From contig NZ_JAPYRE010000005.1 of assembly GCF_029936995.1 (NCBI RefSeq), forward strand, positions 1-64,000: a DNA stretch of 64,000 nt, read 5' to 3'. Of the stretch, positions 1,805-16,756 are shown in pieces. The notes below the pieces were generated by a model. It was given only the letters and a program-made list of their open reading frames with translations. It searched no databases and was not told the origin of the DNA. Position 1 is the first letter of the stretch, and every line of letters begins with the position of its first letter. A program made the position numbers and the translations under genes. This DNA is from Henriciella sp. (lineage in GTDB: Bacteria > Pseudomonadota > Alphaproteobacteria > Caulobacterales > Hyphomonadaceae).

Positions 1805-2596
1805 TCAGATAGAACCTATGCTTCGCAAAAACCTCTCGAACAGATGAGCTTGCGAATGGATACCGAGCTTGGCGTAAATGTGACGCTTGTGGTTCGTGAC
1901 CGTGCCTACCTCGATCGATAGCCTGTACGCGATCGACTTGGTTGCATGCCCCCGCAGCAGGAGCTCGACAACCTGGCATTCGCGGTCGGTCAGGTTGCCC
2001 ATCGCTTCAATCCGCGTGCGCAGATCAATCGGCACGCGGGTCCTGCCGTCGTCACGTTGCATCCTGTCGAGCCGTCTTATCCTGTGGCGAACGAACAGGT
2101 CGATGATCGGCCAAAAGCTCCTGAGAAGCCCGAATTCCTGATCGGAAAAGGCTGGCGACTTCATCTCGCGTTCTACAAATACGTGAACGACCCTTGCGTG
2201 GCTTATCGGTACGATGAAGCGAACTTCGTCGCGAACATCCGTATGAATGTAGTGGTAGCGGTAGAACTCGCTCTCAAAGAAGTCATCAGGCATGATATCC
2301 TGAAGCCGGAGTACTCCCGATATTGATTTCTGGGCTTCGATGACAAATGGATCAAGCAGGAACAGACCATCAGTGAAGTCCTGCATTTGCTCCCGCAGTC
2401 TTTTTTCTTGGAGGTTTGAGCCAAGCAGTTCAGGCGGCGTTGTGCCATCGAAGGCGTAGACGATCAGGTTGTCGAATGGGCAGAGCCTGCCAAGCTCGGT
2501 CTGAAGGCTCTTGTAGTCCTGTTCATTCTCTGCAGAAGAGATCAGCCGGGCAATCGACTCCATCGATTGACCAAAGGATTGGATGTCAACGCTCAA
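1805..2596 (-). CDS. LuxR-family transcriptional regulator
   Basis: A 263-residue regulator with a C-terminal LuxR/FixJ helix-turn-helix at about residues 199-258 (LTDRECQVVELLLRGHATKSIA, then VTNHKRHIYAKLGI). The first 190 residues are a soluble sensing domain with DGLFLLDPF and a late FSDQEFGLLRSFWPII segment, a pattern I associate with LuxR-type regulators next to catabolic genes; I do not see the full set of conserved autoinducer-domain residues. It is divergent from the TonB receptor gene across about 140 bases containing a perfect dyad. By position it is the likely regulator of the peptide-utilisation genes to its right, with the imported peptide or a product as plausible signal (inference). 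Confidence 0.85.
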   Translation of the reverse strand: MSVDIQSFGQSMESIARLISSAENEQDYKSLQTELGRLCPFDNLIVYAFDGTTPPELLGSNLQEKRLREQMQDFTDGLFLLDPFVIEAQKSISGVLRLQDIMPDDFFESEFYRYHYIHTDVRDEVRFIVPISHARVVHVFVEREMKSPAFSDQEFGLLRSFWPIIDLFVRHRIRRLDRMQRDDGRTRVPIDLRTRIEAMGNLTDRECQVVELLLRGHATKSIAYRLSIEVGTVTNHKRHIYAKLGIHSQAHLFERFLRSIGSI

Positions 2597-2648
2597 GGTG
2601 AAGTCTCGATGTGTCCATGGAATGCCCTCCGTGTGCTCAAACCCGGCC

Positions 2649-2664
2649 TGTCATGTTTATGACA
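2649..2664. promoter_or_regulatory. candidate operator, TGTCAT-GTTT-ATGACA
   Basis: A perfect inverted repeat (6-base arms, 4-base spacer) in the divergent intergenic region between the LuxR-type regulator and the TonB receptor. Its size and symmetry fit a lux-box-like site. The right half TTATGACAT (2657-2665) recurs on the opposite strand at 11585-11593, in the divergent region between the two serine hydrolases of the same cluster. Confidence 0.45.
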
Positions 2665-2734
2665 TATGCAAGCCCGGTCTGATGTCTTTTCCTCGCTAGA
2701 CAAGCAGCAGGTGATCCATAGCGGGGTAAGACGC

Positions 2735-4906
2735 ATGAAAAACGAAGCGATGAAAGCTAGTCAAGTTAGGTTGCGCGCTTTGTTGCTGGCAACGGTAGCA
2801 TTGAGCGGGCAGCATGCACTGGCCCAGGAAGCAACGGAGCCTCCCTCCGAGCCGGAACGTGCAGAGGCAAACAAGCTGGACACCATTTTTGTCACTGCTC
2901 GCCGGCGAGCTGAGCAGGTCAGTGAAGTGCCGACGAGTCTGGACGTGTTCTCCGGGGACTCGCTTGAGGAGCTCGGTGTCACCTCGCTTGAGACACTTCA
3001 ATATCAAACTCCGGGCCTCAACATCGCGGTCGGCGGAGAAAGTACGCGGGTCTCACTGCGGGGTGTCGGAACCAATATCGCTTCCGGAGCCCCTTCTGTC
3101 GCTGTGCATATTGATGGCGTTTATATTCCCAACACACAGTTCGCGCTAACCGAATTGTTCGATCTTGCACGTGTAGAGGTCCTGAAAGGGCCACAGGGGA
3201 CCCTGTACGGCCGCAACGCTACTGGCGGTGTCATCAACCTGGTCACAGAAGAACCGGGGTCTGAGTTCAGCGCTGACGGCTGGCTCGGATATGGAAGCTT
3301 CGACCTCGTAACCGCGCAGGCGGGTGCTTCAATCCCGCTTGGAGACCGCGGTGGAATTCGGGTCAGTGGCGCGTTCGCCGATGATGAGGGCTATACTGAG
3401 AACCTCAATCCGGCGGGCGGTGAAATTGACAGCCGTGGCTATGCCGGCGCACGCCTGAGAGGCCAGTACGACCTGTCAGAGTCCCTGAGTGCGGACTTCA
3501 CGGTCCAGTATTCGGAGGACGATGGAACACTCGGTTACGGTGGCTCCAACAATCCTGCGTCGCCCGTATTCGCCAGTGTGCCGGAGGCTCAGCGCAGATC
3601 ACCGGGCGAAATCAACGTCGACACGGCACCTGACTCATACAAGGAGGGTTTGCTGCTCTCGGGAACGCTGACCTGGGATGTTGGCAATATGACCCTGAAG
3701 TCGATTACCGGATATGGCGAGTACGAGTTCAACAAGCGTGAAGATGTCGACGGTTCAGGTGGCTTCATTGCTTTTGCCACAACGGATTTTCAGACCGAGT
3801 TTTTTTCGCAGGAGCTCCAGATCCTCGGCGAAGAGCCGGGTGGCCTGAGCTGGACGGCCGGTCTGTATTATGCAAGCGAAAGCAATCGTGGCCGGGGCAT
3901 TGAAACCGATGCGGATTTCCCTGACCCGACACCCTTTATTTTTACGGATGTCTCGCAAAGCATCGACAGTGAAACTGTCGCTGCATTCGGCGAATTGACA
4001 GTGCCCCTGACGTCAAAACTCTCCGCAACAGTTGGCGGACGCTACACATCTGCCGAGCAAACCGGCAATGGTGTCTTCGCCGCTCCCCTTTTTCTGCCAG
4101 AGCCTATTCCCACCAGCGCTTCGACCGATGACGAAGGTTTCGCTCCCAAGCTGCTCCTGGAGTATCGCCCATATGATGGCGGACATCTCTATGCGAGCGT
4201 GACAAGAGGTTTCAAGAGCGGTGGTGTGAACATTGGTTTCGAGGGTGACACCTTCGATCCGGAGAAAATCTGGGCCTATGAAATCGGTTCGAAGAACCGG
4301 CTGGCCAATGGCCGGGTCGAACTCGACCTCGCCGGGTTCTATTACGACTATACCGACCTCCAGCTCAGGACAGCGCTCTTCACCGATAATGGCATCGATA
4401 TTCGCGTCACCAACGCGACAAAGGCCAAGATTGCAGGGGTTGAGCTATCGTCACTATTCCAGGTCACGCCTGACCTGTCCGTTGACCTGAGCGGGGCATA
4501 CATCGACTCGGAGCTTGAGAATTTCATCTCTCCGGTCACGCTGACGGAGCTCCAGGGGCAACCTACGCCGTTGACGCCGGAAGTCAGCTATACCCTTGGC
4601 GCGCAGTACGAAACCCAGGCTTTTGGCCAAGGTACACTCACAGCGCGGGTAGAGGCGAACCATCAGTCATCCATAACCTTCCCCCAGTTCACGGATCTGC
4701 AACGGGAACGACGGGATGCAATCACACTCGTCAATGCGAATCTGCGATATGACTTTCCCGGCGAGCAGTACTACCTCGCCCTGATCGGCAGGAATCTCAC
4801 GGACGAGCAGTACCTGACACAACGCTTCTTCTACGAGGGCTTTGCCGACACGGAATACTATGCCGCGCCTCGCACGATCGAGGCCCGTATCGGCTTCCGG
4901 TTCTAA
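2735..4906 (+). CDS. TonB-dependent outer-membrane receptor
   Basis: A 723-residue outer-membrane transporter. The signal peptide ends near ALAQ-E (about residue 31), followed by a TonB-box-like DTIFVTARR, a plug domain (LQYQTPGLN, VSLRGVG, PQGTLYGRNATGGVINL at about residues 90-180) and a long beta-barrel ending in aromatic FRF, as required for barrel assembly. I chose ATG 2735; ATG 2750 and a longer frame from 2666 are alternatives, but the signal peptide fits best here. It is the first gene of a plus-strand unit with an amidase, an epimerase and an MFS carrier; the next gene's AAGGAGGT overlaps its stop codon. The ligand is probably a peptide-derived compound rather than iron, judged only from the neighbours. 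Confidence 0.92.
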   Translation: MKNEAMKASQVRLRALLLATVALSGQHALAQEATEPPSEPERAEANKLDTIFVTARRRAEQVSEVPTSLDVFSGDSLEELGVTSLETLQYQTPGLNIAVGGESTRVSLRGVGTNIASGAPSVAVHIDGVYIPNTQFALTELFDLARVEVLKGPQGTLYGRNATGGVINLVTEEPGSEFSADGWLGYGSFDLVTAQAGASIPLGDRGGIRVSGAFADDEGYTENLNPAGGEIDSRGYAGARLRGQYDLSESLSADFTVQYSEDDGTLGYGGSNNPASPVFASVPEAQRRSPGEINVDTAPDSYKEGLLLSGTLTWDVGNMTLKSITGYGEYEFNKREDVDGSGGFIAFATTDFQTEFFSQELQILGEEPGGLSWTAGLYYASESNRGRGIETDADFPDPTPFIFTDVSQSIDSETVAAFGELTVPLTSKLSATVGGRYTSAEQTGNGVFAAPLFLPEPIPTSASTDDEGFAPKLLLEYRPYDGGHLYASVTRGFKSGGVNIGFEGDTFDPEKIWAYEIGSKNRLANGRVELDLAGFYYDYTDLQLRTALFTDNGIDIRVTNATKAKIAGVELSSLFQVTPDLSVDLSGAYIDSELENFISPVTLTELQGQPTPLTPEVSYTLGAQYETQAFGQGTLTARVEANHQSSITFPQFTDLQRERRDAITLVNANLRYDFPGEQYYLALIGRNLTDEQYLTQRFFYEGFADTEYYAAPRTIEARIGFRF

Positions 4907-4917
4907 GGAGGTCGATA

Positions 4918-5649
4918 ATGGTTTCAATTTCCGCCCGGCCATTCGACTGGCCCTATGACGACAATCTGGATCCGGCGACTACAGCCATTCTGGTGATTGA
5001 CATGCAGAAAGGGTTCTTCGCCTCCGATGGATATCTTGCAGGCAAGGGCTATGACACATCGCCAATGCAGACAGTCATCGGCACCGTTTCACGGCTGGTC
5101 AAAGGTGCGCGCGATACAGGGTGCAAGGTCATCTGGACCCGGCAAGGGTTTCGTGCTGACGCGGCTGATGCCTCACCATACGACAAATGGCGAGCGTCCC
5201 GTGCAGGTATTCAACTCGACGATGCTTCCCAGACTTCGCTCAGCCGGGGTACGCCGGGCCATCAGATACTTCCCGAGCTTGCCCCTCATCCATCAGACAT
5301 AATCGTCGACAAGACCGCAAACGGGGCATTTTACCAGACCGATCTGGAAATGATCCTGAGGTCGCAGTCCATCACCAATCTTATCTTTTGCGGTGTGACG
5401 ACGGATGTATGTGTTCACACAACTCTACGCGAAGCCGTCGACCGCAAGTATCAGTGCATGCTGGTTGAAGACGCATGCGCGAGTGGCGACCAATATGCGC
5501 ATGATGCGGGGGTGCACATGGTAACTGTAGAGGATGGAATATTCGGTGTGGTCGCGTCGACAGATGCCGTTCTGGATGGTTTTTCCAAACTTGGATCTTC
5601 GTCAGCGGACTACAGACGGTCAGGTGTCGTCGCAGGTCGTCGCTCATGA
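4918..5649 (+). CDS. isochorismatase-fold cysteine hydrolase (amidase)
   Basis: A 243-residue member of the isochorismatase-like hydrolases, which cleave amide or ureido bonds (N-carbamoylsarcosine amidase, ureidoacrylate hydrolase RutB, nicotinamidase). The triad is visible: Asp28 in ILVIDMQKGF, Lys132 in VDKTANGAF, and Cys165 in GVTTDVC, with the preceding Gly-Val-Thr-Thr of the cis-peptide loop. A strong AAGGAGGT precedes the ATG, and the stop overlaps the following epimerase start by 4 bases (ATGA), so the two are translationally coupled. The substrate is not predictable from sequence; in this setting it could release ammonia from a carbamoyl or amide group on an amino acid or dipeptide. 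Confidence 0.85.
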   Translation: MVSISARPFDWPYDDNLDPATTAILVIDMQKGFFASDGYLAGKGYDTSPMQTVIGTVSRLVKGARDTGCKVIWTRQGFRADAADASPYDKWRASRAGIQLDDASQTSLSRGTPGHQILPELAPHPSDIIVDKTANGAFYQTDLEMILRSQSITNLIFCGVTTDVCVHTTLREAVDRKYQCMLVEDACASGDQYAHDAGVHMVTVEDGIFGVVASTDAVLDGFSKLGSSSADYRRSGVVAGRRS

Positions 5650-6650
5650 CTCTTTCAGTTTACGCCACCATGGAGCGCTGGCCCCTCAAAGAGCCATTCT
5701 CAATTGCGCGATACACCTTCGTGGAGAGCCTTGTTGTAACAATCCGTGTGCGCGACTCCGAGGGCTATGAAGGCGTAGGCGAATGTGAACCCCATGAGTG
5801 GGATGAGCAGGCTAGCCTGGGAATGCTCAAATCTGCAGGTCTTGAGCCGGACAAATGGCTGGAGCCGCAATGGGCAACGCGCCGTATCGATCGGGAGCGA
5901 TTGATCCAGGAGTTGCCACGTTCGCCAATCCGTAATGCCATTGACTGTGCGCTCTGGGACCTGGCGTGCAAACGCGAAGGCAAAAGGGCCAGTCATTTCG
6001 CCGATACTGAATGGTCTCCGCTGACCGTCATCCCCACGATCGGAATCGACACCCCGGAAAAAATGGAAACGATCGCCAGATCCTTCGGGCCAGTCTCGAT
6101 GATCAAGGTCAAGCTCGGCGCGTCGGACGGGCTGGATGCAGACCGCATGGAAGCCGTCTCTCATGCCATGCCCGGTGTGCCCCTCCTAATAGACGTCAAT
6201 ACGGGTTGGTCGCCCGAAATGTTGACGTCGATGCTACCTGTTGCCCGCCGGTGCAATGTCCGCATCATCGAGCAACCCATGCTTCCTGAAATGGACGAAC
6301 ACATGCTGGCCCCGGTGAACGACATGCTGTATTGCGCCGATGAGAGTTGTCTGGATCGCGCGTCTCTTCCGCGAATCCAGCCCTACTTCCAGTACATCAA
6401 CATCAAACTCGACAAGACGGGGGGGCTTACCGAAGCCTCGGCGCTTCGGAAAGAAGCTGAACGTCTCGGTATGGGCGTGATGGTTGGCATGATGAGCGGC
6501 ACATCGCTCGCTGTCGCACCTGCCTCTCTCCTCGCGCAGGGGCTGGAGGTGGTGGACCTCGAGCTTGGCTTCCTCAAGCAGGATCGCGATCCGGCCATGA
6601 AAATTGATAGTGATCAGCTGCTTCCGCCCAAGTCCAGTCTCTGGGGATAG
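5646..6650 (+). CDS. dipeptide epimerase, enolase superfamily (copy 1)
   Basis: A 334-residue member of the muconate-lactonizing subgroup, closest in motifs to L-Ala-D/L-Glu and other dipeptide epimerases, which invert the second residue of a dipeptide. The N-terminal capping domain is followed by the barrel: Lys154-x-Lys156 (KVK) and Lys257 (KLDK) as the two opposed bases, Asp183, Glu209 and Asp232 (IDVN, IIEQP, ADES) as Mg2+ ligands. The motif that holds the dipeptide amino group is usually Asp-x-Asp; here it is Asp304-Leu-Glu306, a conservative change that may alter specificity. Its start overlaps the amidase stop. A second epimerase lies at 8063-9052. Confidence 0.88.
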   Translation: MTLSVYATMERWPLKEPFSIARYTFVESLVVTIRVRDSEGYEGVGECEPHEWDEQASLGMLKSAGLEPDKWLEPQWATRRIDRERLIQELPRSPIRNAIDCALWDLACKREGKRASHFADTEWSPLTVIPTIGIDTPEKMETIARSFGPVSMIKVKLGASDGLDADRMEAVSHAMPGVPLLIDVNTGWSPEMLTSMLPVARRCNVRIIEQPMLPEMDEHMLAPVNDMLYCADESCLDRASLPRIQPYFQYINIKLDKTGGLTEASALRKEAERLGMGVMVGMMSGTSLAVAPASLLAQGLEVVDLELGFLKQDRDPAMKIDSDQLLPPKSSLWG

Positions 6651-6651
6651 G

Positions 6652-8016
6652 ATGGTAATGGGACACGACAACGAGAACAGTAACCCAGAGATAGCACGGA
6701 CGAGCCTTCGATATGGCATATCAGTCCTGCTGGTGGTGGCGCTGGTCAGCATTACCTTGAACCTCGTCACATTGCCGTTTGCGCAGGTCGCCAACGAGAT
6801 CAGTGAGACGTATGCGATTGACGATGTGAAGTTCAGCCTCCTGATAGGGGTGTTTTTCGCGATCCCGATCACATTGATGAGCGTGGCGGGAGGCTGGCTA
6901 TCCGACCGCCTCTCCCGTCGGAACCTGCTGATGATTGCCATAGTTGCCTGGACGGTGGGCGGCATCTGGACTGCGCTGGCTCCCAGTTATGAACAGATGG
7001 CAGCCGCCAGGATGCTCGTGGCTGCTGCAGTGGGGATAAAGTTTCCGCTGACAATGACGTGGATCAATGACGCGTTTCCTGCTCACCAGAGAGCAAGGGC
7101 GATTGGCGCGCTCTTCGTCGTCCTGAACATCGGGCCAGCCACAAGCGCCGCGATTGCGGGAATGGTCCTGCAAGGCGCCGAAGAAAACGTTTTTTCGTGG
7201 CTGCCAATGGTTCCGGGCCTGGCTCCCTGGAGAACGGGCCTGCTTGTGCTCGCCTTGTTGGCTGTAGTGCCCCTTCCTTTTCTGGCTCTGCTGAAAGACG
7301 CACGACGCGGACAGGCCGAAGGGCCGGCAAACGGCAAAACGGCAGCTACGCGCTCCTACCCGATCTGGATCATCGGCGCTCTTGTGGTCAGTGCAGCATT
7401 GCTTGGGCTGGCAGACACCGCCACGCTTGGTTGGTTGCCGGCCGTGTTGAAGAGGCAGTATGATTACAGTGCCGAACAGGTTGGCTTCACTTTCGCACTC
7501 ATCGTCATGACTGCGGGTATAGCAGGCCCTCTGCTTGCGGGCTTCCTCGATGACCGTCTGCATAAACGGTATGGCCTCATCGCCAGTCTTGTAACTTGCG
7601 GTATTGCTTGTGCGCTATGCGCTCCGCTGATTGCGGCGTTTGCTCAGCCCAGCGCCTACATCCTGGTGGGCGCCCTACTGGTCAGCGGGGTTATTTCAGT
7701 AATGGCCATGACAGTGGCCTACGTCGCAATCCAGTCATTGCTGTCCGCCGATACCCGGGGGGCCGGGACTGGCCTTGCCCACGCGCTGGAAAACCTGTCG
7801 CGTGCGGCGGCCCCAACGATCGTGGCATCGGTCGCACTGCTGTATACTCAGGCCCCTGGCGATGGCCTCGGTATGGGCGTTGCCACTGTTTGCGTCGCAA
7901 TCTATCTGGTCAACTGTGTCCTCTATGCCGGGCTGACCCTTAACCTGGTCCGTCGCAAGCGCAGAACGGCAATGGCGGGGGCGCCAGAGCCAGCTGGAAG
8001 CTCAGGTATCCAGTAG
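6652..8016 (+). CDS. MFS transporter
   Basis: A major facilitator of about 454 residues with roughly 12 membrane helices and the motif-A loop GGWLSDRLSRRNLL between helices 2 and 3. Either ATG 6652 or ATG 6658 can be the start: GGGGA and AGGA lie just upstream, and the preceding epimerase stops at 6650. It is the last gene of the receptor-amidase-epimerase unit and most likely carries the peptide or amino-acid substrate across the inner membrane. MFS families transport very varied molecules, so the substrate rests on context alone. The gene ends 46 bases from the convergent epimerase copy 2. Confidence 0.88.
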   Translation: MVMGHDNENSNPEIARTSLRYGISVLLVVALVSITLNLVTLPFAQVANEISETYAIDDVKFSLLIGVFFAIPITLMSVAGGWLSDRLSRRNLLMIAIVAWTVGGIWTALAPSYEQMAAARMLVAAAVGIKFPLTMTWINDAFPAHQRARAIGALFVVLNIGPATSAAIAGMVLQGAEENVFSWLPMVPGLAPWRTGLLVLALLAVVPLPFLALLKDARRGQAEGPANGKTAATRSYPIWIIGALVVSAALLGLADTATLGWLPAVLKRQYDYSAEQVGFTFALIVMTAGIAGPLLAGFLDDRLHKRYGLIASLVTCGIACALCAPLIAAFAQPSAYILVGALLVSGVISVMAMTVAYVAIQSLLSADTRGAGTGLAHALENLSRAAAPTIVASVALLYTQAPGDGLGMGVATVCVAIYLVNCVLYAGLTLNLVRRKRRTAMAGAPEPAGSSGIQ

Positions 8017-8062
8017 TTGCCAAGTTCCGGTACCCCGCGATGGCTCCGGTACAGATAAGGCT

Positions 8063-9052
8063 TTACCCCCAAAGCTGACGGGAGGGGGGCTGGACCATCG
8101 GCCCCTCGTAGATGAGCGCATGCTCACGATCCTGCTGGCAGAGCAGCGGCGCGTCCAGATCCACATATGTGCATTTCTGACCGATAACGAAGTGTGGCGC
8201 CATTGCGAGCGATGTGCCGCCCATATTGCCGGCCATCAGGCCAAAACCTGCCTGCCTGGCCAGACCGGCGAGAGACAAGGCTTCTGTCAGCCCGCCGGTC
8301 TTGTCCAGCTTGATGTTGACGAAGTCATACAAGCCGCGAAGGCCTGTCAGCGAAGAGCTGTCGGTGCAGGATTCATCTGCGGCAAGCCGAACAGGACCAG
8401 CATAGCCTTCCAGCGTGCCATCCTCACCTACAGGAACAGGCTGCTCGATAAGTTCCACGCCAAGCTTGTGAAGCGGCCCGGCCAGGGCGTCCAGCAGGTC
8501 GCGGTCCCATGAGCCATTCGCATCAATGAGAATTCGCGCGGCCGGGTGAGCCTCGCGCGCCGCCTCCACATTTGCCAAGTGGTGCTCCCGGTCGACTTTG
8601 AGCTTGATGATCGGCATGTGCCGGACTGCATCGACAGCGTTATATATTGCGTCGCTTTCCATGATGCCGAAGGTCAGTGCGGTTTGACGAGGCTGCATAT
8701 CGTCTTCGCCGAAAAGCGCCCAGATGCGCCGCCCTGCTTGTTTGCAGCGTAAATCCCACAAAGCGCAGTCGAGCGCATTTCGAGCGCCCCCCCGCGGCAT
8801 CAAACGAAGCAGATCAGCTGGCTTGATGGTCTGGCCGAGCAAAGGCGTCATTTCGCGCAATTGCTGCAGCATGCCCTCTATTGTTTCGCCTTCATACGGC
8901 AGCCCGGCCGCCTCACCCCGCCCTGTTACGCCATTCTGGTCAGATAACTCGGCTACGATAACTTCCATGGCATAATAGGTTTGCCGTGCAATCCGAACGG
9001 GCGCCTTCAAGTCCCACGCCTCAGCGCGAGCTATAAGCTTTAACTCGCTCAT
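8063..9052 (-). CDS. dipeptide epimerase, enolase superfamily (copy 2)
   Basis: A 329-residue paralog of the epimerase at 5646-6650, with a canonical active site: Lys150-x-Lys152, Lys251 (KLDKTGG), metal ligands Asp177, Glu203 and Asp226, and the Asp298-Leu-Asp300 pair that binds the dipeptide amino group in L-Ala-D/L-Glu epimerases. It is the last gene of a minus-strand unit: its ATG overlaps the stop of the M55 D-aminopeptidase by 4 bases. Two epimerases in one locus, differing at the substrate-binding Asp/Glu, suggest two related dipeptide substrates or two steps. Confidence 0.88.
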   Translation of the reverse strand: MSELKLIARAEAWDLKAPVRIARQTYYAMEVIVAELSDQNGVTGRGEAAGLPYEGETIEGMLQQLREMTPLLGQTIKPADLLRLMPRGGARNALDCALWDLRCKQAGRRIWALFGEDDMQPRQTALTFGIMESDAIYNAVDAVRHMPIIKLKVDREHHLANVEAAREAHPAARILIDANGSWDRDLLDALAGPLHKLGVELIEQPVPVGEDGTLEGYAGPVRLAADESCTDSSSLTGLRGLYDFVNIKLDKTGGLTEALSLAGLARQAGFGLMAGNMGGTSLAMAPHFVIGQKCTYVDLDAPLLCQQDREHALIYEGPMVQPPSRQLWG

Positions 9053-9871
9053 GAGTATTTCGACGCAAACCGGAGAAAGGTGAGAATGGCGAGGTAATCG
9101 TCGCTCTCCAGTTCCACCTCGGTATCAGATATTAGTTTCGCGCCGGGATAGAATGACCGGGCATAAGCCTCGGCCCCATGCCGAAACTCCACGTTGAGCT
9201 TGAAATGGTCCGGCAGGGCAAGCGGAAGTGGCCTGTCGCTGGCGACTGCCCGGCAAACAGCTTCTTCAATGAGTTGAACAGACGAAGATGGTGCGATGGA
9301 CCTGACGGATGGCCCATGCCCACTCAGTGTGTGCACTGTCATGACACCTGGGATCAGTTTCTCAGCTTCAGCGCACACTGTGCTGTCGCCGGTTACGGCA
9401 ATGACCGGGACATCAACTGTTGCAGCGGCGAGGGCATAAAGGCGCAGTTCGGATGCGGTTTCGCCATTGAGTTCGATCCCGGCAAACAGCCGGCCATTTA
9501 TTGTGTGGGGCGAGCGGATTACCGGCCTGGCCGGCCGCGCAGTGGAACCCTATAAAAACAGCTCCGGAAAAGCTCTCATCAATTTCCTGAACCATTCCCA
9601 GCGGATGACCGCTCCAGCCGCGAATAAGCTCGAAAGACTTGCCCTCAGGTACCTGGAAATCAGACAGGACGAGATTTCGACCGGACCCATGGGCATCCTT
9701 TGTCAGGATTTCAGTCGCGCCAGCCGTAAACGCTCCACGACTTGCCGCCATGACTTCGGCGGCCATCTGCTGGCGAAAAGGCGCGTAGTCTCCGGGCATC
9801 GCCATATTGGCTTCACTCGCGGATGCAATGCCAGCAACACCTTCGATATCTGCGCTGATGTAAATCTTCAT
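9049..9871 (-). pseudogene. M55 D-aminopeptidase (DppA family), interrupted by a one-base frameshift
   Basis: The first part (9871 to about 9510) gives MKIYISADIEGVAG, with Asp8, Glu10, His61 (TKDAHG) and His110 (GFHC) matching the zinc ligands of Bacillus DppA, then NPLAP followed by nonsense to 9413. Removing one C from the minus-strand run of four (plus-strand GGGG at 9507-9510) restores NPLAHTINGRLFAGIELNGE and joins the frame that ends at 9049 (CAEAEKLIPG to FASKYS). The repaired product would be about 273 residues, the normal DppA length. DppA removes N-terminal D-residues. Both ends overlap neighbours by 4 bases, so the operon is otherwise intact. Either a real recent mutation or a homopolymer sequencing error. 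Confidence 0.85.
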
Positions 9872-11538
9872 GTCCGGTCACCATCCCTTCTATCGAACCG
9901 CACCCGGCGAGCCCGGTGGGTGTCTATCCACAATCCCCAGCTTATGCCGTCAGCGGCGACGTCAATTTCCATCGAGTAACGTTCAGCGCCGTCTTCGGAC
10001 ACGAGTCCAAGATGGCGGTCAGAGATAGCGAAGGCAGAAAACCGGCGCACGCCGCTATAATCGCCCTGGATCGCAACCTGGCAGTCTTCACTGGCGGATA
10101 TGGCAACCGTGGCATCAAGTTCTTCACTGAAATACGCGCCCGCTGCTGCCTGTAGGATGGCCGTACATGGACGGGCTGGTTTTTCCAGCAAGTTCATCTG
10201 GTGCTTTTTACCCGCGATGGTGACAGGCAAACCGGCGTCGGGGTCATTCTCAAAGTTTGCGAGATCAGACTTTAGCCAGACCAGTGGGCCGAAGCCTATC
10301 TCTTCGAACAGGGCAAAGACCGACTGTTCGTCCTCGTAGAGGACGGGCGCAGGCAGCATGTGCATTTGCGACAGGCCTAGCAGTCCGTTCACGTCTCCGA
10401 ATGAAAGCAACACCCCTGAGGAGTGCGCGAAATGATGGCCGGGCAGATAACCGAAATCGGCCGTTCTTGCGCGCCTACGCGCCGCTTCGGAGAACTTGCC
10501 GGATAGACAATTATCCAAGGCAGAGAAAGCAAGCTGCGTCGCGCTCGCAGCAGCACCATTCACAGCAATTACGATGTCGGTTTCATGTTCCGGCACGCTG
10601 ATGATTTGGGCATTCAGTCCGAACAGACCGCCAGAATGCTGGAAAACTTCCACACCGCGATAGGAGTGAGGTTTGATGCCCATGGCATATGTCGTCTCGA
10701 AACCGCTCGCGAGTGTGGCAGGCGCAAGAAGCTCCTCCCATGTCGTATCCGTGCCAACATTCTTTGTGCCTCGCAGGTGCGCAAGCCAGCGAAGCATGTC
10801 GTCGACTGTGCTTACAATGCCGCCATCCCCGCGGATCTCCGTATCGACGGGTGGCCGTTCCCAGCGCTCTCCATTTCTGACATGCGCTGATGCCAGGCCC
10901 GGCACCATCTCGTGGTCATTCTCGACGATATCTGTGTCGAACATGGCCAGCGGCTCGAAAATGCGCCGTCTGGTAAAGTCGGGAAATGTTTCACCGGAAA
11001 TCTTTTCGATCACATCGGAAATCGCAACGAATGTTCCGTTGCAATAGAGCTGCTCCGCGCCGGGGTCATACTGGAGACCTTTCTGCCGACTCTGGGCTTG
11101 CTCTTGCCAGTCCCGCGGCTGAGGCGCGTAGCCATTGGCAATACTTCCCAGTTCCAGCGTGCACCGCAGCCCGCTTGTATGGGTCATGAATTGCCGGAGC
11201 GTTGCCTCTCCAGCAGGGCCTCGAAACCTGGGAAGGTAAGTCGACACTGGCGCGTCAATATCGACCTTGCTTTCTTCGGCGAGCAACATCAGCGCAAGAC
11301 ACGTGAACTGCTTGGTAATGGAGGCGAAACGGATACGGGTCTGGGGTGTATTGGCGAGGCCATGCTGGACGCTCGCCAGCCCGAAGCCACGTCGGTAGAT
11401 GAATTCCGGACCCGATCTCACAGCCACGATCATTCCTGGCGCATTGCTGTCATTGAACCCCGAAAACAGGTGATCGAGGGCCTCTGCCTGCCTTGTTTCT
11501 GGTCGCTGTGGTATCGTCACCAAGAGAATTTGCCTCAC
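9868..11538 (-). CDS. S12 serine hydrolase, D-aminopeptidase-like (copy 1)
   Basis: A 556-residue penicillin-binding-protein-fold hydrolase. The N-terminal 340 residues carry the class C signature: Ser73-x-x-Lys76 (SITK), Tyr165-x-Asn167 (YCN) and His301-Ser-Gly. The remaining 200 residues form the extra beta-rich domains found in D-aminopeptidase DAP (EC 3.4.11.19), which separate it from plain beta-lactamases. There is no obvious signal peptide, so it is probably cytoplasmic. It heads a minus-strand unit, overlapping the M55 D-aminopeptidase start, and is divergent from its paralog at 11654. An esterase or amidase role cannot be excluded, but M55 and epimerase neighbours support D-peptide cleavage. 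Confidence 0.8.
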   Translation of the reverse strand: MRQILLVTIPQRPETRQAEALDHLFSGFNDSNAPGMIVAVRSGPEFIYRRGFGLASVQHGLANTPQTRIRFASITKQFTCLALMLLAEESKVDIDAPVSTYLPRFRGPAGEATLRQFMTHTSGLRCTLELGSIANGYAPQPRDWQEQAQSRQKGLQYDPGAEQLYCNGTFVAISDVIEKISGETFPDFTRRRIFEPLAMFDTDIVENDHEMVPGLASAHVRNGERWERPPVDTEIRGDGGIVSTVDDMLRWLAHLRGTKNVGTDTTWEELLAPATLASGFETTYAMGIKPHSYRGVEVFQHSGGLFGLNAQIISVPEHETDIVIAVNGAAASATQLAFSALDNCLSGKFSEAARRRARTADFGYLPGHHFAHSSGVLLSFGDVNGLLGLSQMHMLPAPVLYEDEQSVFALFEEIGFGPLVWLKSDLANFENDPDAGLPVTIAGKKHQMNLLEKPARPCTAILQAAAGAYFSEELDATVAISASEDCQVAIQGDYSGVRRFSAFAISDRHLGLVSEDGAERYSMEIDVAADGISWGLWIDTHRARRVRFDRRDGDRT

Positions 11539-11653
11539 ACTTCGATGGTCTGCCTATACCCTAAGGAAAGGGGACGCGCGCACCATGTCATAACCTTGCT
11601 ATCCAAGACGTTTGCGACCGCGGCTACACAGGTAGCCCAATTCGAGGTTCAGG
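11539..11653. promoter_or_regulatory. divergent promoter region with a shared half-site
   Basis: A 115-base region between the two divergent serine hydrolases. ATGTCATAA at 11585-11593 is the reverse complement of the TTATGACAT half of the dyad at 2649-2665 upstream of the TonB receptor. Only a half-site is present, so regulator binding is a suggestion. I did not find clear -35/-10 pairs. Confidence 0.3.
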
Positions 11654-13246
11654 ATGGACACACAGAAGATCAGGAAAATCGACGCGCTGTTTGATGCGTT
11701 TAACTGCGCTGATGAGCCGGGATGCGCTGTCGCTGTCAGTGTTGATGGACAACCGGTATATAGGCAGGCTTTTGGCATGGCTGACCTGAAGCAGGGCGTT
11801 GCGAACCAAGTTTCAACGCCCATGCCGGTCGGGTCAATCGCCAAGCAGTTCACGTCCGCGGCCGTCCTGCTGCTCGAGGCTCAAGGCCGCCTCGCGCTCG
11901 ACGACACTCTTGGAAAATGGCTTCCCGAGTTATCTTCCGAACATGAAGAGGTTACGATTGAGCAACTGATGCGCCATCAGGGCGGGGTCAGATGCTATCT
12001 CGATCACTGGATGTTCAATGCTTACCGCACTTTAAGTGCAGACACGCCCTGGATGATCCAGAGCCGTCAGCAGAGCCTGAATTTCAAGCCTGGCACGCGG
12101 AGCGCTTACAGCAATGGCGGATACCTGCTGCTGACAGCTATTATAGAACGGGCCAGAGGCATCCCCTTCGATCCGTTTGTCGCCCAAAATCTTTTTGGAC
12201 CGGCCGGCATGTACGCCTCATGCATCGCGCCATGGAACGAAATAACCTCTGGCGCGGCGTCTGCTTACCTCTTCGATCAGGATGCCAGCATATGGCGCCC
12301 CGCTCCAAAGCTGACAGAAAGAGCCTTTGGGGATGGCGGTCTTATCTCGAGTGTCGACGATTTGCTTCGCTGGGCCAGCTTCCTCCGAACGTCTTCAGGG
12401 CCGGTGCAGCTGGATAATTTGCTAGCGCCAAACGTTTCTCGCGCAGTGGGGCCCTCTGACTATCGTTATGGTGTGATTGAACAGGATTGGCGTGGCGTGC
12501 GCCTCGTACATCATGCTGGTGGGATGCCCGGAGCCAACAGCATTCTTGCAATGCTTCCAGATGAAGGCATTGACGTCGCCATCCTTTTCAATCGTCCGGC
12601 ATCTGCAATGACGTACGCTTTCGATGTACTTGAGATCATTCTGGGAGACCGGCTGGAGGCTACATCCGATACCCCACTGACCGAGGACTTTGAAGACCTT
12701 CTGGGGACTTACTGGGCGCCCGAAAGCGGGTTTATGTTTGCGTTGTGCGACCTGGGCGGCCAGCTCGGTTTGAGCTTTTTTGGAGATAGTGCCTTTCCAC
12801 TCGAGAGCTGGCATGGCGATCCCGACGCCTTGCCATTCTGGGCCGATGCAGGCGCATCGCAAATCCGGTTTCGACAAAACGATGTTTCGGGTGCTCTGGA
12901 TTACTTTGATGGCAGGAGCTGGCTCCAGACTGAAAGACTGGAACCGTCCACGCCTGATCCTGAACGGATTGTCGCGCTCACGCCTGGACGGTTTCATTCA
13001 GTGGCTGCCGACGCACAACTGGAGCTGAAGGTGAAAGCAGGCCGGCTGGTTGTGGAGATTGAGGGAAGCGCCGGACTTAGCCGTTACGATGCAGAAGCCC
13101 TGACAGAAAATCTTGTGCGTTTCTGGCCGCCTTTGTTTCCGGCTGGGAAGCTGGCACGGATTATTCGTCATGATGGGGCCGTGGAGGCAATTGCCGTGAG
13201 CACGCCTCGCACCTGTGAAACGCTTTTCAAGAACATCGATACATAA
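11654..13246 (+). CDS. S12 serine hydrolase, D-aminopeptidase-like (copy 2)
   Basis: A 530-residue paralog of the hydrolase at 9868-11538. Catalytic motifs: Ser61-x-x-Lys64 (SIAK), Tyr152-Ser-Asn154 (YSN) and His287-Ala-Gly. A C-terminal beta-rich part of about 190 residues again resembles D-aminopeptidase DAP rather than a beta-lactamase. No signal peptide is evident. It starts a plus-strand unit with a D-amino-acid dehydrogenase-like flavoprotein 17 bases downstream and an AstB homolog. It is well diverged from copy 1, so two specificities are more likely than a recent duplication. Confidence 0.8.
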   Translation: MDTQKIRKIDALFDAFNCADEPGCAVAVSVDGQPVYRQAFGMADLKQGVANQVSTPMPVGSIAKQFTSAAVLLLEAQGRLALDDTLGKWLPELSSEHEEVTIEQLMRHQGGVRCYLDHWMFNAYRTLSADTPWMIQSRQQSLNFKPGTRSAYSNGGYLLLTAIIERARGIPFDPFVAQNLFGPAGMYASCIAPWNEITSGAASAYLFDQDASIWRPAPKLTERAFGDGGLISSVDDLLRWASFLRTSSGPVQLDNLLAPNVSRAVGPSDYRYGVIEQDWRGVRLVHHAGGMPGANSILAMLPDEGIDVAILFNRPASAMTYAFDVLEIILGDRLEATSDTPLTEDFEDLLGTYWAPESGFMFALCDLGGQLGLSFFGDSAFPLESWHGDPDALPFWADAGASQIRFRQNDVSGALDYFDGRSWLQTERLEPSTPDPERIVALTPGRFHSVAADAQLELKVKAGRLVVEIEGSAGLSRYDAEALTENLVRFWPPLFPAGKLARIIRHDGAVEAIAVSTPRTCETLFKNIDT

Positions 13247-13263
13247 CTGTCAGGGAGGCTGTT

Positions 13264-14442
13264 TTGATAACCGCCGATTTTTTAGTCGTGGGAGGTGGCA
13301 TCGCCGGATCATCTGCCGCAGCCGGGCTTGCTCCACATGGGCGAACAATCATGCTCGAGGCGGAAGACGCCTTTGGTTACCACTCGAGTGGACGAAGCGC
13401 GACCTATTATCACTTCGGTATAGGCAATTCGACCGTGCGCGGACTGACGGCATTTTCCAGGCGGCACTTCGAGAGCAAAACCTTGAAGGGGGTCGCCCGT
13501 TCCCATCTGTCACCAGCCCTGTTTGTTGCGACCTCGGACATGCTCACGGAAATGGATGCACTGCGGCGAGAAATGGGACGATTTACAGATAGTCTCGAGC
13601 ATATTGATGAGGTCGCTCTGCGTAAAATTGTGCCCGTCCTCAAAAGCGGAGACGAAGGCCTGCTGGCAGGCATCATGGACCATTCTGCCCGGCGTCTCGA
13701 CAGTGATGCACTTCTGCAGGATTACCGAGCGGCGCTCAGTCAGGAAGGTGGAAAATCGGTCACCAATGCCCGCGTTGCCAGCATTGAACGTAAGGACGGA
13801 AGCTGGGTGATAACGACAACCAGGAACGAATGCTACGCAGCACCCGTACTCGTCAATGCAGCGGGGGCCTGGTGTGATCACGTCGCAGGCATGGCTGGTG
13901 TCGAACCATTGGAGCTTAAGTCCCTGCGCCGGACGATAATCTCGATTGACGCCCCGCCCGAGCACGATGCCAGGTCCTGGCCCTTCACCAAGACAGTTGT
14001 CGACGACTTCTACATGCTGCCGGAATCCGGCAGACTGCTCGCCTGTCCGGTCGACGAAGTTCCAAGCGACCCAACAGACGCTCAGCCCGAAGATTATGAC
14101 ATTGCGCTGGCGGCGGCAAAGGTTGAAGAATACACGAGCATACCCGTCCGCCGTATCGCTCATAAATGGGCCGGATTGCGCACCTTTACGCGTGACCGTG
14201 TGCCGGTCGCAGGTTTCGCGCCCGATGCGGCCGGCTTTTTCTGGCTCGCGGGGCAGGGCGGCTATGGATTGCAAACCGCCCCGGCGATGAGCGCCATAAC
14301 CGAGGCGTTGATTACCGGAGCACCCTGGCCGGATGACCTGGAACAGCTCGGCGTTACAGAAAGCGCACTCAGCGTTGAACGACTGAAGCAGGCGGACAAG
14401 AATACTGAGGTTGCGCCCCCGGAGGCACGTGGCAATGCGTGA
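13264..14442 (+). CDS. FAD-dependent D-amino-acid dehydrogenase, DauA (D-arginine dehydrogenase)-like
   Basis: A 392-residue DAO-family flavoprotein. The start is a TTG: GGGAGG lies 5 bases upstream, and the next Met is past the FAD-binding motif (VVGGGIAGS, residues 8-16). Compared from memory with Pseudomonas DauA it aligns almost without gaps over its length (GYHSSGRSA, VLVNAAGAWCD, WAGLRTF, QGGYGLQT). The carboxylate-binding Arg223, Tyr250 and the Arg of WAGLR are kept. However, residue 87, Glu in DauA where it selects cationic D-amino acids, is Phe here, and His48 and Tyr53 are Tyr and Ile. It probably oxidises a D-amino acid to a 2-oxo acid and ammonia, perhaps not D-arginine. The ATG of the next gene overlaps its stop region. 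Confidence 0.82.
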   Translation: MITADFLVVGGGIAGSSAAAGLAPHGRTIMLEAEDAFGYHSSGRSATYYHFGIGNSTVRGLTAFSRRHFESKTLKGVARSHLSPALFVATSDMLTEMDALRREMGRFTDSLEHIDEVALRKIVPVLKSGDEGLLAGIMDHSARRLDSDALLQDYRAALSQEGGKSVTNARVASIERKDGSWVITTTRNECYAAPVLVNAAGAWCDHVAGMAGVEPLELKSLRRTIISIDAPPEHDARSWPFTKTVVDDFYMLPESGRLLACPVDEVPSDPTDAQPEDYDIALAAAKVEEYTSIPVRRIAHKWAGLRTFTRDRVPVAGFAPDAAGFFWLAGQGGYGLQTAPAMSAITEALITGAPWPDDLEQLGVTESALSVERLKQADKNTEVAPPEARGNA

Positions 14443-15724
14443 GGTCAATTTCGATGGCCTCATAGGGCCCAGTCATAATTATGCAGGCCTTTCGCTTGGC
14501 AACATCGCTTCATCCAGCAATGCCGGGGACGTCTCTCATCCACGCAAGGCTGCGTTGCAGGGCGTTGCAAAGATGCGTCGGATGATCGAGCTCGGTCTTC
14601 TTCAGGGTATTTTACTTCCACATGATCGCCCAAACGTCGCCTGGCTTCGCAAGCTTGGGTTTTCCGGGAACGATGAGGATGTTCTTGCCAGAGCCTGGCG
14701 CGAAGAAAAGCACCTGTTCGTAAACGCATTCTCGGCTTCACCGATGTGGACTGCGAACGCGGCAACGGTCTCTCCTTCGCCTGATACGTCTGATGGGCGG
14801 TGTCACCTGTCCGTCGCGAACCTCTCAACCATGCTTCATCGCAGCAACGAACCCGCGCAGACGGAGCGTCAGTTGCTACTGGCCTTTTCTGAAAGTGCAC
14901 ACTTTGCGGTACATGGTCCGCTACCCGGTCATATTGGTGATGAAGGGGCCGCAAATTTCATGCGTGTTGGCCCTTCCCATGGAGCGGCATCATTGGAGAT
15001 TTTCGTCTATGGCTTGCAGGGTGATAACGCATTCCCGGCGCGTCAGAGCGATGCCGCAGGCCGTGCAATCGCCAGGAGGCACGGTCTCGCAGATCTCCGG
15101 CAGCTCCATGTGCAGCAAAGCTCTGCGGCGATCGCGGCGGGCGCTTTCCACAACGATGTCGTCGCCGTCGCAAACGAAAATGTGCTCTTTACCCACGAAC
15201 AAGCCTTCGAGAAGCAGAACGAAGTATATGCCGAAATCCGCGAGTGCGCGCGAGATACGATCATTCTCGAAGTTCCCACCACAGCGGTCAGCCTCGATGA
15301 GGCGATAAAGTCCTATCTTTTCAACTCGAAGCTAGTAACGCTACCGGATGGAGCGATGATCCTGGTCGTGCCCGGCGAATGTCGTGAGAGCCCCTCGGTC
15401 TGGCAGTGGCTTTGCGACAATACAGGCGGCGACCATCCGGTCTCAGATGTGGAAGTCGTAGAGGTGCGTGAATCCATGAGAAATGGTGGCGGCCCTGCCT
15501 GTCTCAGGCTGCGCGTGGCCGCTAGCGAAGCTGCCATAGCCGCAATTGATTCTCGCTTCCTTATTGATGAACGCAAGTGCGACCTGCTTGCTCATATAAT
15601 CGAAACGCAATGGCCAGAACGCATTTCACCCACTGATCTCAGCAGTCCTGATCTCTGGGCAGAATGTAGGCACGCACGATTATCGCTGCTTGATGCTCTG
15701 AACTTCGCGTCTGACGAACTTTGA
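14435..15724 (+). CDS. astB: N-succinylarginine dihydrolase homolog (AstB)
   Basis: A 429-residue protein matching AstB throughout (EVNFDGLIGPSHNYAGLS, ASPMWTANAATVSPS, NGGGPACLRLRV). AstB turns N2-succinylarginine into succinylornithine, CO2 and two ammonia in the AST arginine pathway. Catalytic Glu170 (GDEGAAN), His239 (FHND) and Cys356 correspond to E. coli Glu174, His248 and Cys365. I chose ATG 14435, with GGAGG at 14421-14425; a TTG at 14411 is less likely. It overlaps the preceding flavoenzyme by 8 bases. astA, astC, astD and astE are not next to it, so it may complete an AST pathway encoded elsewhere or act on another N-acyl-arginine from this cluster. Confidence 0.9.
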   Translation: MREVNFDGLIGPSHNYAGLSLGNIASSSNAGDVSHPRKAALQGVAKMRRMIELGLLQGILLPHDRPNVAWLRKLGFSGNDEDVLARAWREEKHLFVNAFSASPMWTANAATVSPSPDTSDGRCHLSVANLSTMLHRSNEPAQTERQLLLAFSESAHFAVHGPLPGHIGDEGAANFMRVGPSHGAASLEIFVYGLQGDNAFPARQSDAAGRAIARRHGLADLRQLHVQQSSAAIAAGAFHNDVVAVANENVLFTHEQAFEKQNEVYAEIRECARDTIILEVPTTAVSLDEAIKSYLFNSKLVTLPDGAMILVVPGECRESPSVWQWLCDNTGGDHPVSDVEVVEVRESMRNGGGPACLRLRVAASEAAIAAIDSRFLIDERKCDLLAHIIETQWPERISPTDLSSPDLWAECRHARLSLLDALNFASDEL

Positions 15725-16505: not shown

Positions 16506-16599
16506 GAGTGAACTTACCCGCCAAGGAGTCGTTAGAGACGACTGACGAATTTTGCGGGAAGAGCAGGGAAAATCGTGCGGGGAGAGACCGCAGCCCAAG

Positions 16600-16621
16600 A
16601 AAAAGCCCGCCAGTGGCGGGC
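16600..16621 (-). terminator. intrinsic terminator downstream of tRNA-Ser
   Basis: Perfect 7-base stem GCCCGCC/GGCGGGC with a 3-base loop (16605-16621), followed on the minus strand by TTTTT (16600-16604). It lies about 45 bases past the 3' end of the minus-strand tRNA-Ser. Confidence 0.75.
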
Positions 16622-16665
16622 GATTTGCGGAAGTCCCAGATCTGGGCTCTGAAATTGGGTCTCGG

Positions 16666-16756
16666 TGGCGGAGAGGGAGGGATTCGAACCCTCGGAACGC
16701 GAAAAGCGCTCAACGGTTTTCGAGACCGCCCCGTTCGACCACTCCGGCACCTCTCC
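16666..16756 (-). tRNA. tRNA-Ser(CGA)
   Basis: Class II tRNA on the minus strand. The acceptor stem GGAGAGG (16750-16756) pairs with CCTCTCC, then discriminator G and an encoded CCA (16666-16668). The anticodon loop CTCGAAA gives CGA, reading UCG serine codons; a long variable arm (GAGCGCTTTTCGCGTTC) and a TTCGAAT T-loop are present. Confidence 0.95.

What the first reader, a model, noticed from the sequence alone, without database searches (positions are those of the whole stretch)
1805..15724. A compact locus for D-amino-acid-containing dipeptides, possibly arginine-linked
Seen: one regulator, one TonB receptor, one MFS carrier, two dipeptide epimerases, an M55 and two S12 D-aminopeptidase-like hydrolases, an amidase, a DauA-like flavoenzyme and an AstB homolog, tightly coupled (4-8 base overlaps) in three divergent units. 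Known: the families act on D-residues at peptide ends, on dipeptide stereochemistry, on D-amino acids and on N-acyl-arginine. Inference: the locus imports and dismantles a specific D-containing dipeptide or acyl-peptide, perhaps an arginine-bearing natural product or wall fragment. I do not know a described pathway with this gene set.
Basis: partly seen in the sequence, partly recalled or inferred. Interest (0 to 1): 0.82.

Follow-up and report, generated by a model that had tools for sequence, protein, structure and literature searches.

The report
Acquired D-peptide scavenging gene island
A bacterium carries an acquired gene island that probably imports small peptides or acylated amino acids containing mirror-image (D) residues and breaks them down; the kind of system is known in outline, its exact food is not, and the proposed arginine link is weak.

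Summary
The gene set is real, with one correction: the M55 gene is split by a frame shift at a CCCC run. The D-residue theme holds: S12a's best solved relative is D-aminopeptidase 1ei5, and both epimerases keep the catalytic residues checked.

Neighbourhood comparison is mixed. The kinds of genes recur together: S12 lies near 36 of 40 high-scoring epimerase loci, TonB near 29; in 20 lower-scoring controls, 1 and 0. These are family-level likenesses, not orthologs. AstB, M55 and DauA-like genes were near none of the 60. A closer relative of the left unit (regulator 42%, receptor 60%, amidase 63%) sits near a DUF1611 gene and an epimerase.

The arginine link is not supported. AstB looks ordinary and is a second copy; AstA, AstD and AstB lie together on another contig. 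The DauA-like enzyme lacks Glu87, one of two guanidinium-holding glutamates. Both epimerases keep the Arg24-type residue of Glu-type enzymes.

The locus lies in a lower-GC, species-specific stretch ending beside tRNA-Ser. Best reading: an acquired D-peptide/N-acyl-D-amino-acid scavenging island, acidic D residues likelier than arginine. New variant of a known kind.

The parts
1805..2596 (-). LuxR-type (GerE) regulator, divergent from the TonB gene; a 42% identical relative lies in the G991 locus near a related TonB receptor and amidase
   Evidence: Pfam PF00196; tblastn
2666..4906 (+). TonB-dependent receptor
   Evidence: PF00593/PF07715; 60% identical receptor in G991
4918..5649 (+). Isochorismatase-fold cysteine hydrolase (amidase); nearest solved relative biuret hydrolase 6xjm, nearest NCBIfam model BiuH (below cut-off)
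   Evidence: 63% identical gene directly after the related receptor in G991
5646..6650 (+). Epimerase 1, enolase superfamily, DgcA/AEE-like; catalytic residues checked are kept, Arg24 equivalent kept, DxD motif changed to DxE
6652..8016 (+). MFS carrier (start taken as the ATG just after the epimerase; the ORF opens at a TTG at 6604)
   Evidence: PF07690; start region
8063..9052 (-). Epimerase 2, enolase superfamily, DgcA/AEE-like; catalytic residues checked, Arg24 equivalent and DxD all kept
9049..9871 (-). M55 D-aminopeptidase (DppA-like) gene, broken: two pieces in different frames, shift at or near a CCCC run (9507-9510)
9868..11538 (-). S12 hydrolase a, D-aminopeptidase-like; no signal peptide seen by eye (no predictor run); SxxK, YxN and HxG motifs present
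   Evidence: PF00144; best solved relative 1ei5 D-aminopeptidase; motifs
11654..13246 (+). S12 hydrolase b, D-aminopeptidase-like, motifs present
13264..14442 (+). DAO-family flavoenzyme related to DauA; keeps Arg222/Arg305 equivalents, no Glu at 87, Tyr at 48, Ile at 53, Asp at 246
   Evidence: residue roles PMC11193025 passages
14435..15724 (+). AstB homolog (N-succinylarginine dihydrolase), second copy in the genome; the residues checked are kept
15789..16505 (+). GTP cyclohydrolase I-like gene (name from reading the sequence, not from a family scan), in the same species-specific stretch; related genes in 2 of 20 other genus genomes, not near rplU there
16666..16756 (-). tRNA-Ser(cga), border of the species-specific stretch; present beside rplU in all 12 genus relatives examined

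Best explanation
An acquired island for scavenging small peptides or acylated amino acids that contain D residues. Inferred order: the TonB receptor takes the ligand across the outer membrane and the MFS carrier across the inner membrane. In the cytoplasm the two S12 hydrolases (and M55 where intact) cut D residues from the peptide; the amidase removes an amide or carbamoyl group; the two epimerases invert an acidic residue in a dipeptide or N-acyl-amino acid, so that ordinary L-enzymes can use it; the flavoenzyme oxidises a released, probably non-cationic, D-amino acid to its keto acid. AstB feeds any arginine, as N-succinylarginine, into the host's AST pathway and is an add-on. Shown: gene families, catalytic motifs of the epimerases and S12 pair, recurrence of the core kinds of genes, species-specific stretch. 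Inferred: substrate class, step order, cell compartment, the role of each enzyme.
For: Families and motifs. Core kinds of genes recur: Sphingobium sp. V4 TonB-S12-MFS-epimerase, Variovorax paradoxus VAI-C TonB-epimerase-S12-MFS, G1235 of the same order TonB-S12-MFS-epimerase, and 40 epimerase loci from 33 genomes with S12 near 36 (within 3 kb in 33), TonB 29, DUF1611 34, against S12 1, TonB 0, DUF1611 3 of 20 controls. Regulator-receptor-amidase relative near DUF1611 and epimerase genes and a PRK09061-family amidohydrolase. Arg24 equivalent kept in both epimerases as in 22 of 24 DgcA-side proteins. [quoted passage not shown] S12 plus DauA-like pairing also in L033, L037, L063, L121. Island: GC 0.53-0.59 for eleven genes against 0.57-0.65 for nine hand-picked genes beyond; the stretch past tRNA-Ser diverges from relatives; no cluster gene at this site in 12 relatives, four of which hold only 0.8-3.3 kb there. 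Published precedent for TonB receptors beside D-aminoacylase genes: PMC3400609, passages.
Against: Likeness to the recurring sets is at family level only: the receptor is 26-30% and S12a about 23-41% identical to those in the clusters, and the window's MFS carrier hit the V4 and G1235 carriers (28-34% over part) and a short stretch in L037, but none in L034 or L156-L158 at the cut-off. The window's epimerases lie outside the S12-linked clade of 48 rows (43 of them labelled S12-linked; support 100/97) on long branches whose place is unsure, and that clade has Gly or Asp, never Arg, at Arg24. M55 is broken. No DgcN-like gene lies in the locus; the one found in the genome is on another contig. 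S12a-like genes often stand alone: of 20 fetched places of the class sample none had an epimerase or TonB hit and 1 had a DauA-like gene (11 of the 20 stretches are cut short); of 5 from a phylum sample none had any of these and 1 had a regulator relative. No enzyme here has been assayed.
Confidence: 0.6

Rival explanations
1. Murein-peptide scavenging like Bacillus dpp-ykf: L-Ala-D-Glu and D-Ala peptides from cell-wall turnover are imported, cut and epimerised. This is the most concrete form of the best explanation.
For: M55 DppA-like plus Glu-type epimerase pairing; Arg24 and DxD kept in epimerase 2; ykf genes described in PMC2954226 passages.
Against: No NlpC/P60, MpaA-like or LD-carboxypeptidase among the genes scanned in the locus; M55 broken; no ABC dipeptide transporter in the locus. 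The rest of the genome was not searched for these.
Confidence: 0.25
2. Breakdown of a D-residue natural product (a cyanobacterial or other nonribosomal peptide), with the S12 pair opening it and the rest finishing it.
For: Related loci in Variovorax VAI-C and a lichen betaproteobacterial MAG carry M81 (MlrC-family) peptidases beside S12 and a TonB receptor.
Against: No M81 gene among the window's ten Pfam-scanned genes; S12a resembles an aminopeptidase.
Confidence: 0.12
3. One reading: a specific arginine-bearing D-dipeptide or acyl-peptide, with DauA-like and AstB both acting on its arginine.
For: AstB overlaps the flavoenzyme gene by 8 bases and keeps the residues checked; DauA is the nearest solved relative of the flavoenzyme, and one guanidinium contact remains acidic (Asp at 246).
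Against: Flavoenzyme has no Glu at 87 (roles in PMC11193025 passages); AstB not found beside such genes elsewhere and is a second copy; epimerases keep the Glu-type Arg24.
Confidence: 0.08
4. A decaying or chance assembly of amino-acid genes at a tRNA hotspot, without one shared substrate.
For: Broken M55; site content differs among the genus relatives; exact set not found elsewhere.
Against: 4-8 base overlaps within units; the other ORFs are open; the core kinds of genes recur together elsewhere.
Confidence: 0.1

Closest known systems
S12 - epimerase - TonB - DUF1611 (DgcN-like) clusters on three sphingomonad plasmids (Novosphingobium sp. EMRT-2, Croceicoccus marinus, Sphingobium yanoikuyae), two of them with MFS
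   Same: TonB receptor, S12 hydrolase and enolase-family epimerase together
   Different: Window has two epimerases of another branch, no DgcN-like gene in the locus, and adds amidase, M55, flavoenzyme and AstB; sequence likeness is low
TonB - S12 - MFS - epimerase sets of Sphingobium sp. V4 and G1235 (no DUF1611 hit in those stretches)
   Same: Same four kinds of genes, with close S12a relatives among them (36-41% over part)
   Different: Epimerases belong to the S12-linked clade without Arg24; no amidase next to them, no M55, flavoenzyme or AstB hit (G1235 has a weak amidase hit about 10 kb away)
DgcN-DgcA D-glutamate pathway (N-acetylation, racemisation)
   Same: Nearest curated model of both epimerases is DgcA; the host also has a DUF1611 plus epimerase pair on another contig
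   Different: Scores below the DgcA cut-off; no DgcN in the locus; import and D-peptidase genes added
Bacillus dppA-E / ykfA-D murein-peptide genes
   Same: M55 D-aminopeptidase plus Glu-type dipeptide epimerase plus uptake (M55 part recalled; ykf part PMC2954226 passages)
   Different: TonB/MFS instead of ABC; no YkfA or YkfC; S12 pair, flavoenzyme, AstB added
DauA (D-arginine dehydrogenase, 3nyc/6p9d)
   Same: Nearest solved relative by sequence; Arg222 and Arg305 kept
   Different: Glu87, His48 and Tyr53 replaced, Glu246 to Asp
AstB (1ynf)
   Same: Catalytic Cys/His/Glu and other residues recalled as ligand-binding kept
   Different: Second copy, outside an AST operon
TonB receptors next to D-aminoacylase or peptidoglycan genes (PMC3400609)
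   Same: TonB uptake inferred there for N-acyl-D-amino acids (passages)
   Different: Different enzymes at the locus

Membership tests
DgcA (NF042940) | Score over curated cut-off (400 bits) | tested here: not met
   297.4 (epimerase 1), 371.9 (epimerase 2)
DgcA (NF042940) | DgcN (DUF1611) gene alongside | tested here: not met
   None among the locus genes; the single DUF1611 match in the genome is on C12, next to another epimerase
L-Ala-D/L-Glu epimerase | Score over cut-off (343 bits, NF011708) | tested here: not met
   185.9 and 228.5
L-Ala-D/L-Glu epimerase | Catalytic lysines, metal ligands, Arg24 and DxD (roles of Arg24 and DxD recalled) | tested here: met
   All in epimerase 2; epimerase 1 has DxE
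Enolase-superfamily dipeptide/N-acyl-amino-acid epimerases | Epimerisation of a dipeptide or N-acyl-amino acid | not testable with these tools
   Needs an enzyme assay
DauA D-arginine dehydrogenase | Both guanidinium-contacting glutamates, Glu87 and Glu246 | tested here: not met
   No Glu at 87; Asp at 246 (roles PMC11193025 passages)
DAO-type D-amino acid dehydrogenase/oxidase | DAO domain and carboxylate-binding Arg222/Arg305 | tested here: met
   PF01266 168.7 bits; both Arg kept
AstB N-succinylarginine dihydrolase | Subfamily model PRK13281 over cut-off and catalytic Glu174/His248/Cys365 (roles recalled) | tested here: met
   571.6 against 452; residues kept
AstB N-succinylarginine dihydrolase | Equivalog model TIGR03241 over cut-off (538.3) | tested here: not met
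   490.1; the host's own AST-locus copy also falls short at 528.5, so this is not decisive
AST operon | Other AST genes alongside | tested here: not met
   None among the scanned window genes; AstA, AstD, AstB and a PRK07338 hydrolase are together on C3
D-aminopeptidase DAP (S12) | SxxK, YxN, HxG motifs | tested here: met
   Both S12 proteins, alignment A1
D-aminopeptidase DAP (S12) | NCBIfam NF009622 cut-off (443 bits) | tested here: not met
   148.4 and 135.1
M55 D-aminopeptidase | Intact reading frame | tested here: not met
   Two pieces in different frames
S12-epimerase-TonB-MFS sets | S12, epimerase, TonB receptor, MFS together | tested here: met
   Window gene list
S12-epimerase-TonB-MFS sets | Epimerase inside the S12-linked clade | tested here: not met
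   Both window epimerases fall outside it, on long branches of unsure place; residue 24 agrees
Bacillus dpp-ykf genes | Gamma-D-Glu-diamino-acid endopeptidase and LD-carboxypeptidase in the locus | tested here: not met
   None among the scanned genes
mlr microcystin cluster | MlrC (M81) in the locus | tested here: not met
   No M81 among the ten window genes scanned with Pfam
mlr microcystin cluster | MlrA in the genome | not tested
   No search was made

The most novel reading that the evidence does not exclude
A new D-arginine route: a D-arginine residue freed by the S12 hydrolases is succinylated (AstA or a relative elsewhere), one of the two epimerases acts as an N-succinyl-arginine racemase, and AstB takes N-succinyl-L-arginine straight into the AST pathway, skipping deacylation. 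This would parallel the DgcN-DgcA logic with AstB in place of a deacylase. Epimerase 1, with its unusual DxE motif and very long branch, would be the candidate. A search of the paper library for such a route found none.
Probability: 0.05. Interest if true: 0.75.

Novelty: new variant of a known kind. Interest (0 to 1): 0.4.

Why it matters
D-amino-acid peptides are a long-lived part of dissolved organic matter and cell-wall debris (general knowledge), and I know of few uptake-plus-breakdown loci of Gram-negative bacteria with an assigned substrate. The by-product may matter more than the window: an S12 hydrolase/epimerase/TonB/DUF1611 gene set recurs across one alphaproteobacterial family (S12 near 36 of 40 high-scoring epimerase loci), and its epimerases have lost the Arg24-type residue (0 Arg of 48), which predicts a substrate other than glutamate and can be tested directly. 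The listings of my searches (only 20 of 136 papers were listed) showed no paper that describes it; the library holds only open-licence papers.

Tried and rejected
Arginine link through the flavoenzyme: rejected as main reading after residue mapping. Arginine link through AstB neighbours: none of 16 AstB loci fetched for the purpose (L087-L102, the host's own included) showed any other cluster gene at E<=1e-6, and none of three plasmid AstB loci did; a fourth close plasmid hit (H118) was not examined. A microcystin-like substrate was raised because related loci hold M81 genes, and kept only as a rival. The idea that the window is an ortholog of the sphingomonad cluster was dropped after the epimerase tree. 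The search for TonB orthologs found 0 of 129 at E<=1e-150; for the 20 genomes listed the tool scored 8 of up to 144 first-look candidates, and I did not check that the positive genome G991 was in the sample, so this is uninformative. The genome-contig scan gave 33 loci: 28 had only S12 hits, four had one further gene each (L041, L050, L061, L063) and L037 had two, TonB and DauA-like. The host's name was not obtained; its class is inferred to be Alphaproteobacteria.

How counts were made: the 40 high-scoring epimerase loci are 40 of the first 42 rows (rows 25 and 31 left out to fit two calls); they come from 33 genomes, some close kin, so they are not independent. The 20 controls are hand-picked lower rows of the same list, chosen before their neighbourhoods were seen, not at random. 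'Near' means anywhere in the fetched stretch of up to 20 kb; 6 of the 40 and 4 of the 20 stretches are shorter. Gene detection used HMMs that I built from few seeds, so MFS (16 of 40) is probably undercounted; the M55, AstB and DAO zeros rest on the same kind of models. The tree used 74 rows; L175 was left out because L227 covers the same place. The split into 24 DgcA-side and 48 S12-clade proteins was read off that tree.

Full report
OBSERVATION. The listed genes are at the stated places and on the stated strands. They form a lone regulator (1805-2596, -), a unit TonB-amidase-epimerase 1-MFS (+), a unit S12a-M55-epimerase 2 (-) and a unit S12b-flavoenzyme-AstB (+). Overlaps of 4 and 8 bases fit translational coupling within units. 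One claim is wrong in detail: M55 is split between two frames, at or near a CCCC run at 9507-9510.

ISLAND. Eleven cluster genes (folE included) have GC 0.53-0.59 and GC3 0.56-0.68; nine hand-picked genes further right have GC 0.57-0.65 and GC3 0.68-0.75, so the difference is real but the ranges touch. A tRNA-Ser(cga) gene lies at 16666-16756 and sits beside rplU in all 12 genus relatives examined. Seven of the twelve align with the window for a short stretch beyond the tRNA 3' end, up to 168 bases, and then diverge from it; five show no alignment there. No cluster gene was found at this site in those 12, but in four of them (L136, L137, L138, L144) the contig holds only 0.8-3.3 kb beyond the tRNA. 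S12a matched at E<=1e-60 only in the host among 105 genomes of the family, and in the host plus one genome among 299 of the order. The window begins at a contig end, so the other border is unseen. A folE-like gene (15789-16505) belongs to the same stretch; related genes occur in 2 of the 20 other genus genomes searched, not near rplU.

DO THE GENES TRAVEL TOGETHER? In Sphingobium sp. V4 the order is TonB-S12-MFS-epimerase (S12 41% over 312 residues, epimerase 39% identical to the window's). In Variovorax paradoxus VAI-C it is TonB-epimerase-S12-MFS-M81-aminotransferase-RidA-FAD oxidoreductase. In G1235, of the host's order, tblastn finds TonB, S12, MFS and epimerase in that order. On three sphingomonad plasmids the set is S12-epimerase-(MFS in two)-TonB-DUF1611, with a further S12 gene annotated in two and a dipeptidase in one; the Novosphingobium DUF1611 protein scores 446.1 against DgcN, cut-off 480. 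A search of 249 genomes of one family found epimerases of this wider group in 129 at E<=1e-70. Around 40 of the 42 top rows, S12 was found near 36 (within 3 kb in 33), TonB near 29, DUF1611 near 34, an M19-type dipeptidase near 22, MFS near 16, the isochorismatase-fold amidase near 1 and a LuxR relative near 1 (the same locus); DAO, M55 and AstB near none. Around 20 lower-scoring rows, S12 was near 1 (a weak hit), TonB 0, MFS 0, DUF1611 3. So these kinds of genes do recur together, and AstB, M55 and the flavoenzyme are additions. S12 plus a DauA-like gene recurs separately in L033, L037, L063 and L121.

AGAINST. Likeness is at family level: the window's receptor is 26-30% identical to those in the clusters above, and its MFS carrier hits only those of V4 and G1235 in part and a short stretch in L037, not those of L034 or L156-L158. 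S12a-like genes in a class-wide sample mostly stand alone: of 20 fetched places, 1 had a DauA-like gene and none an epimerase or TonB hit; 11 of these 20 stretches are cut short. Of 5 places from a phylum-wide sample none had these genes; one had a relative of the regulator.

CLOSEST RELATIVE OF THE LEFT UNIT. In G991 a regulator (42%), TonB receptor (60%) and amidase (63%) lie within about 7 kb, near an epimerase and a DUF1611 gene, an amino-acid permease, a Beta-lactamase2-family gene, an esterase-like gene and an amidohydrolase of family PRK09061. I recall PRK09061 under the older name D-glutamate deacylase; the tool now says only amidohydrolase family protein. [quoted passage not shown] This ties the receptor and amidase to D-amino-acid or N-acyl-D-amino-acid use.

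EPIMERASES. Both keep the catalytic lysines, metal ligands and the Arg24 equivalent of E. coli L-Ala-D/L-Glu epimerase; epimerase 2 keeps DxD, epimerase 1 has DxE. That Arg24 binds the Glu side chain and DxD the amino group is recalled (Klenchin 2004, not read). Arg24 is Arg in 22 of 24 DgcA-side proteins and in 0 of 48 of the S12-linked clade (46 Gly, 2 Asp). In the tree both window proteins have long branches, of unsure place, and fall outside the S12-linked clade (48 rows, 43 labelled S12-linked; support 100/97). So the window locus resembles the recurring sets in content but took its epimerases from another branch, with a pocket that looks Glu/Asp-type.

FLAVOENZYME. The nearest solved relative is DauA. 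PMC11193025 (passages seen) says Glu87 and Glu246 interact with the guanidinium and Arg222/Arg305 with the carboxylate. The window protein keeps both arginines, has no Glu at 87, Asp at 246, Tyr at 48 and Ile at 53. A D-amino acid dehydrogenase or oxidase is likely; a D-arginine-specific one is not. The four related S12-linked flavoenzymes keep Glu246 and Tyr53 and also lack Glu87.

ASTB. Catalytic Glu174, His248 and Cys365 and the other residues that I recall as ligand-binding are kept. Of 65 columns invariant in 20 other AstBs, the window differs at 3; five other AstBs tested the same way differ at 0-5. It looks like a working N-succinylarginine dihydrolase. The genome has another, 51% identical, beside AstA, AstD and a PRK07338 hydrolase. 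Of the eight closest other AstBs (54-61% identical), seven were checked for cluster neighbours and had none; in G347 and Sphingomonas parapaucimobilis AstA is next to it. Why AstB sits here is unexplained; co-use of arginine released from the ligand is the simplest guess.

VERDICT. A D-peptide or N-acyl-D-amino-acid scavenging island is the best reading (0.6). An acidic D residue is likelier than arginine. The exact substrate is open. The exact gene set is new to me and was not found elsewhere in the collections searched; the kind of system (TonB uptake of D-amino-acid compounds, PMC3400609 passages; epimerase-based murein-peptide use, PMC2954226 passages) is known.

Noticed in passing
L167-L206, L156-L158: An S12 hydrolase / epimerase / TonB / DUF1611 gene set, often with a Pfam-less protein of about 375 aa (27 of 40) and an M19-type dipeptidase (22 of 40), recurs in one alphaproteobacterial family; its epimerases have Gly or Asp where Glu-type epimerases have Arg24.
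   Followed up: partly
L227 1041-12895: Relatives of the window's regulator, TonB receptor and amidase (42/60/63% identical) lie near an epimerase, a DUF1611 gene, an amino-acid permease, a Beta-lactamase2-family gene and a PRK09061-family amidohydrolase.
   Followed up: partly
window 16505-16756: The stretch beyond tRNA-Ser(cga) next to rplU differs in content among 12 relatives of the same genus: a variable insertion site.
   Followed up: partly
window 15789-16505: A folE-like gene lies inside the species-specific stretch; related genes were found in 2 of 20 other genus genomes, two copies in one of them.
   Followed up: partly
window 9049-9871: M55 gene split by a frame shift at or near a CCCC run, between two tightly overlapping genes, which should also uncouple epimerase 2 from S12a.
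   Followed up: partly
L164 8773-10766: The host genome has a DUF1611 (DgcN-like) gene next to a third epimerase on another contig.
   Followed up: no
L033 and L034: Variovorax paradoxus VAI-C carries two different S12-centred loci on two plasmids, one with a DauA-like flavoenzyme and one with an epimerase and M81.
   Followed up: no
window 16927-17667: The ribosomal protein L21-like gene (named by eye) carries a long alanine/lysine-rich C-terminal extension; in most genus relatives tblastn splits the match around this linker.
   Followed up: no
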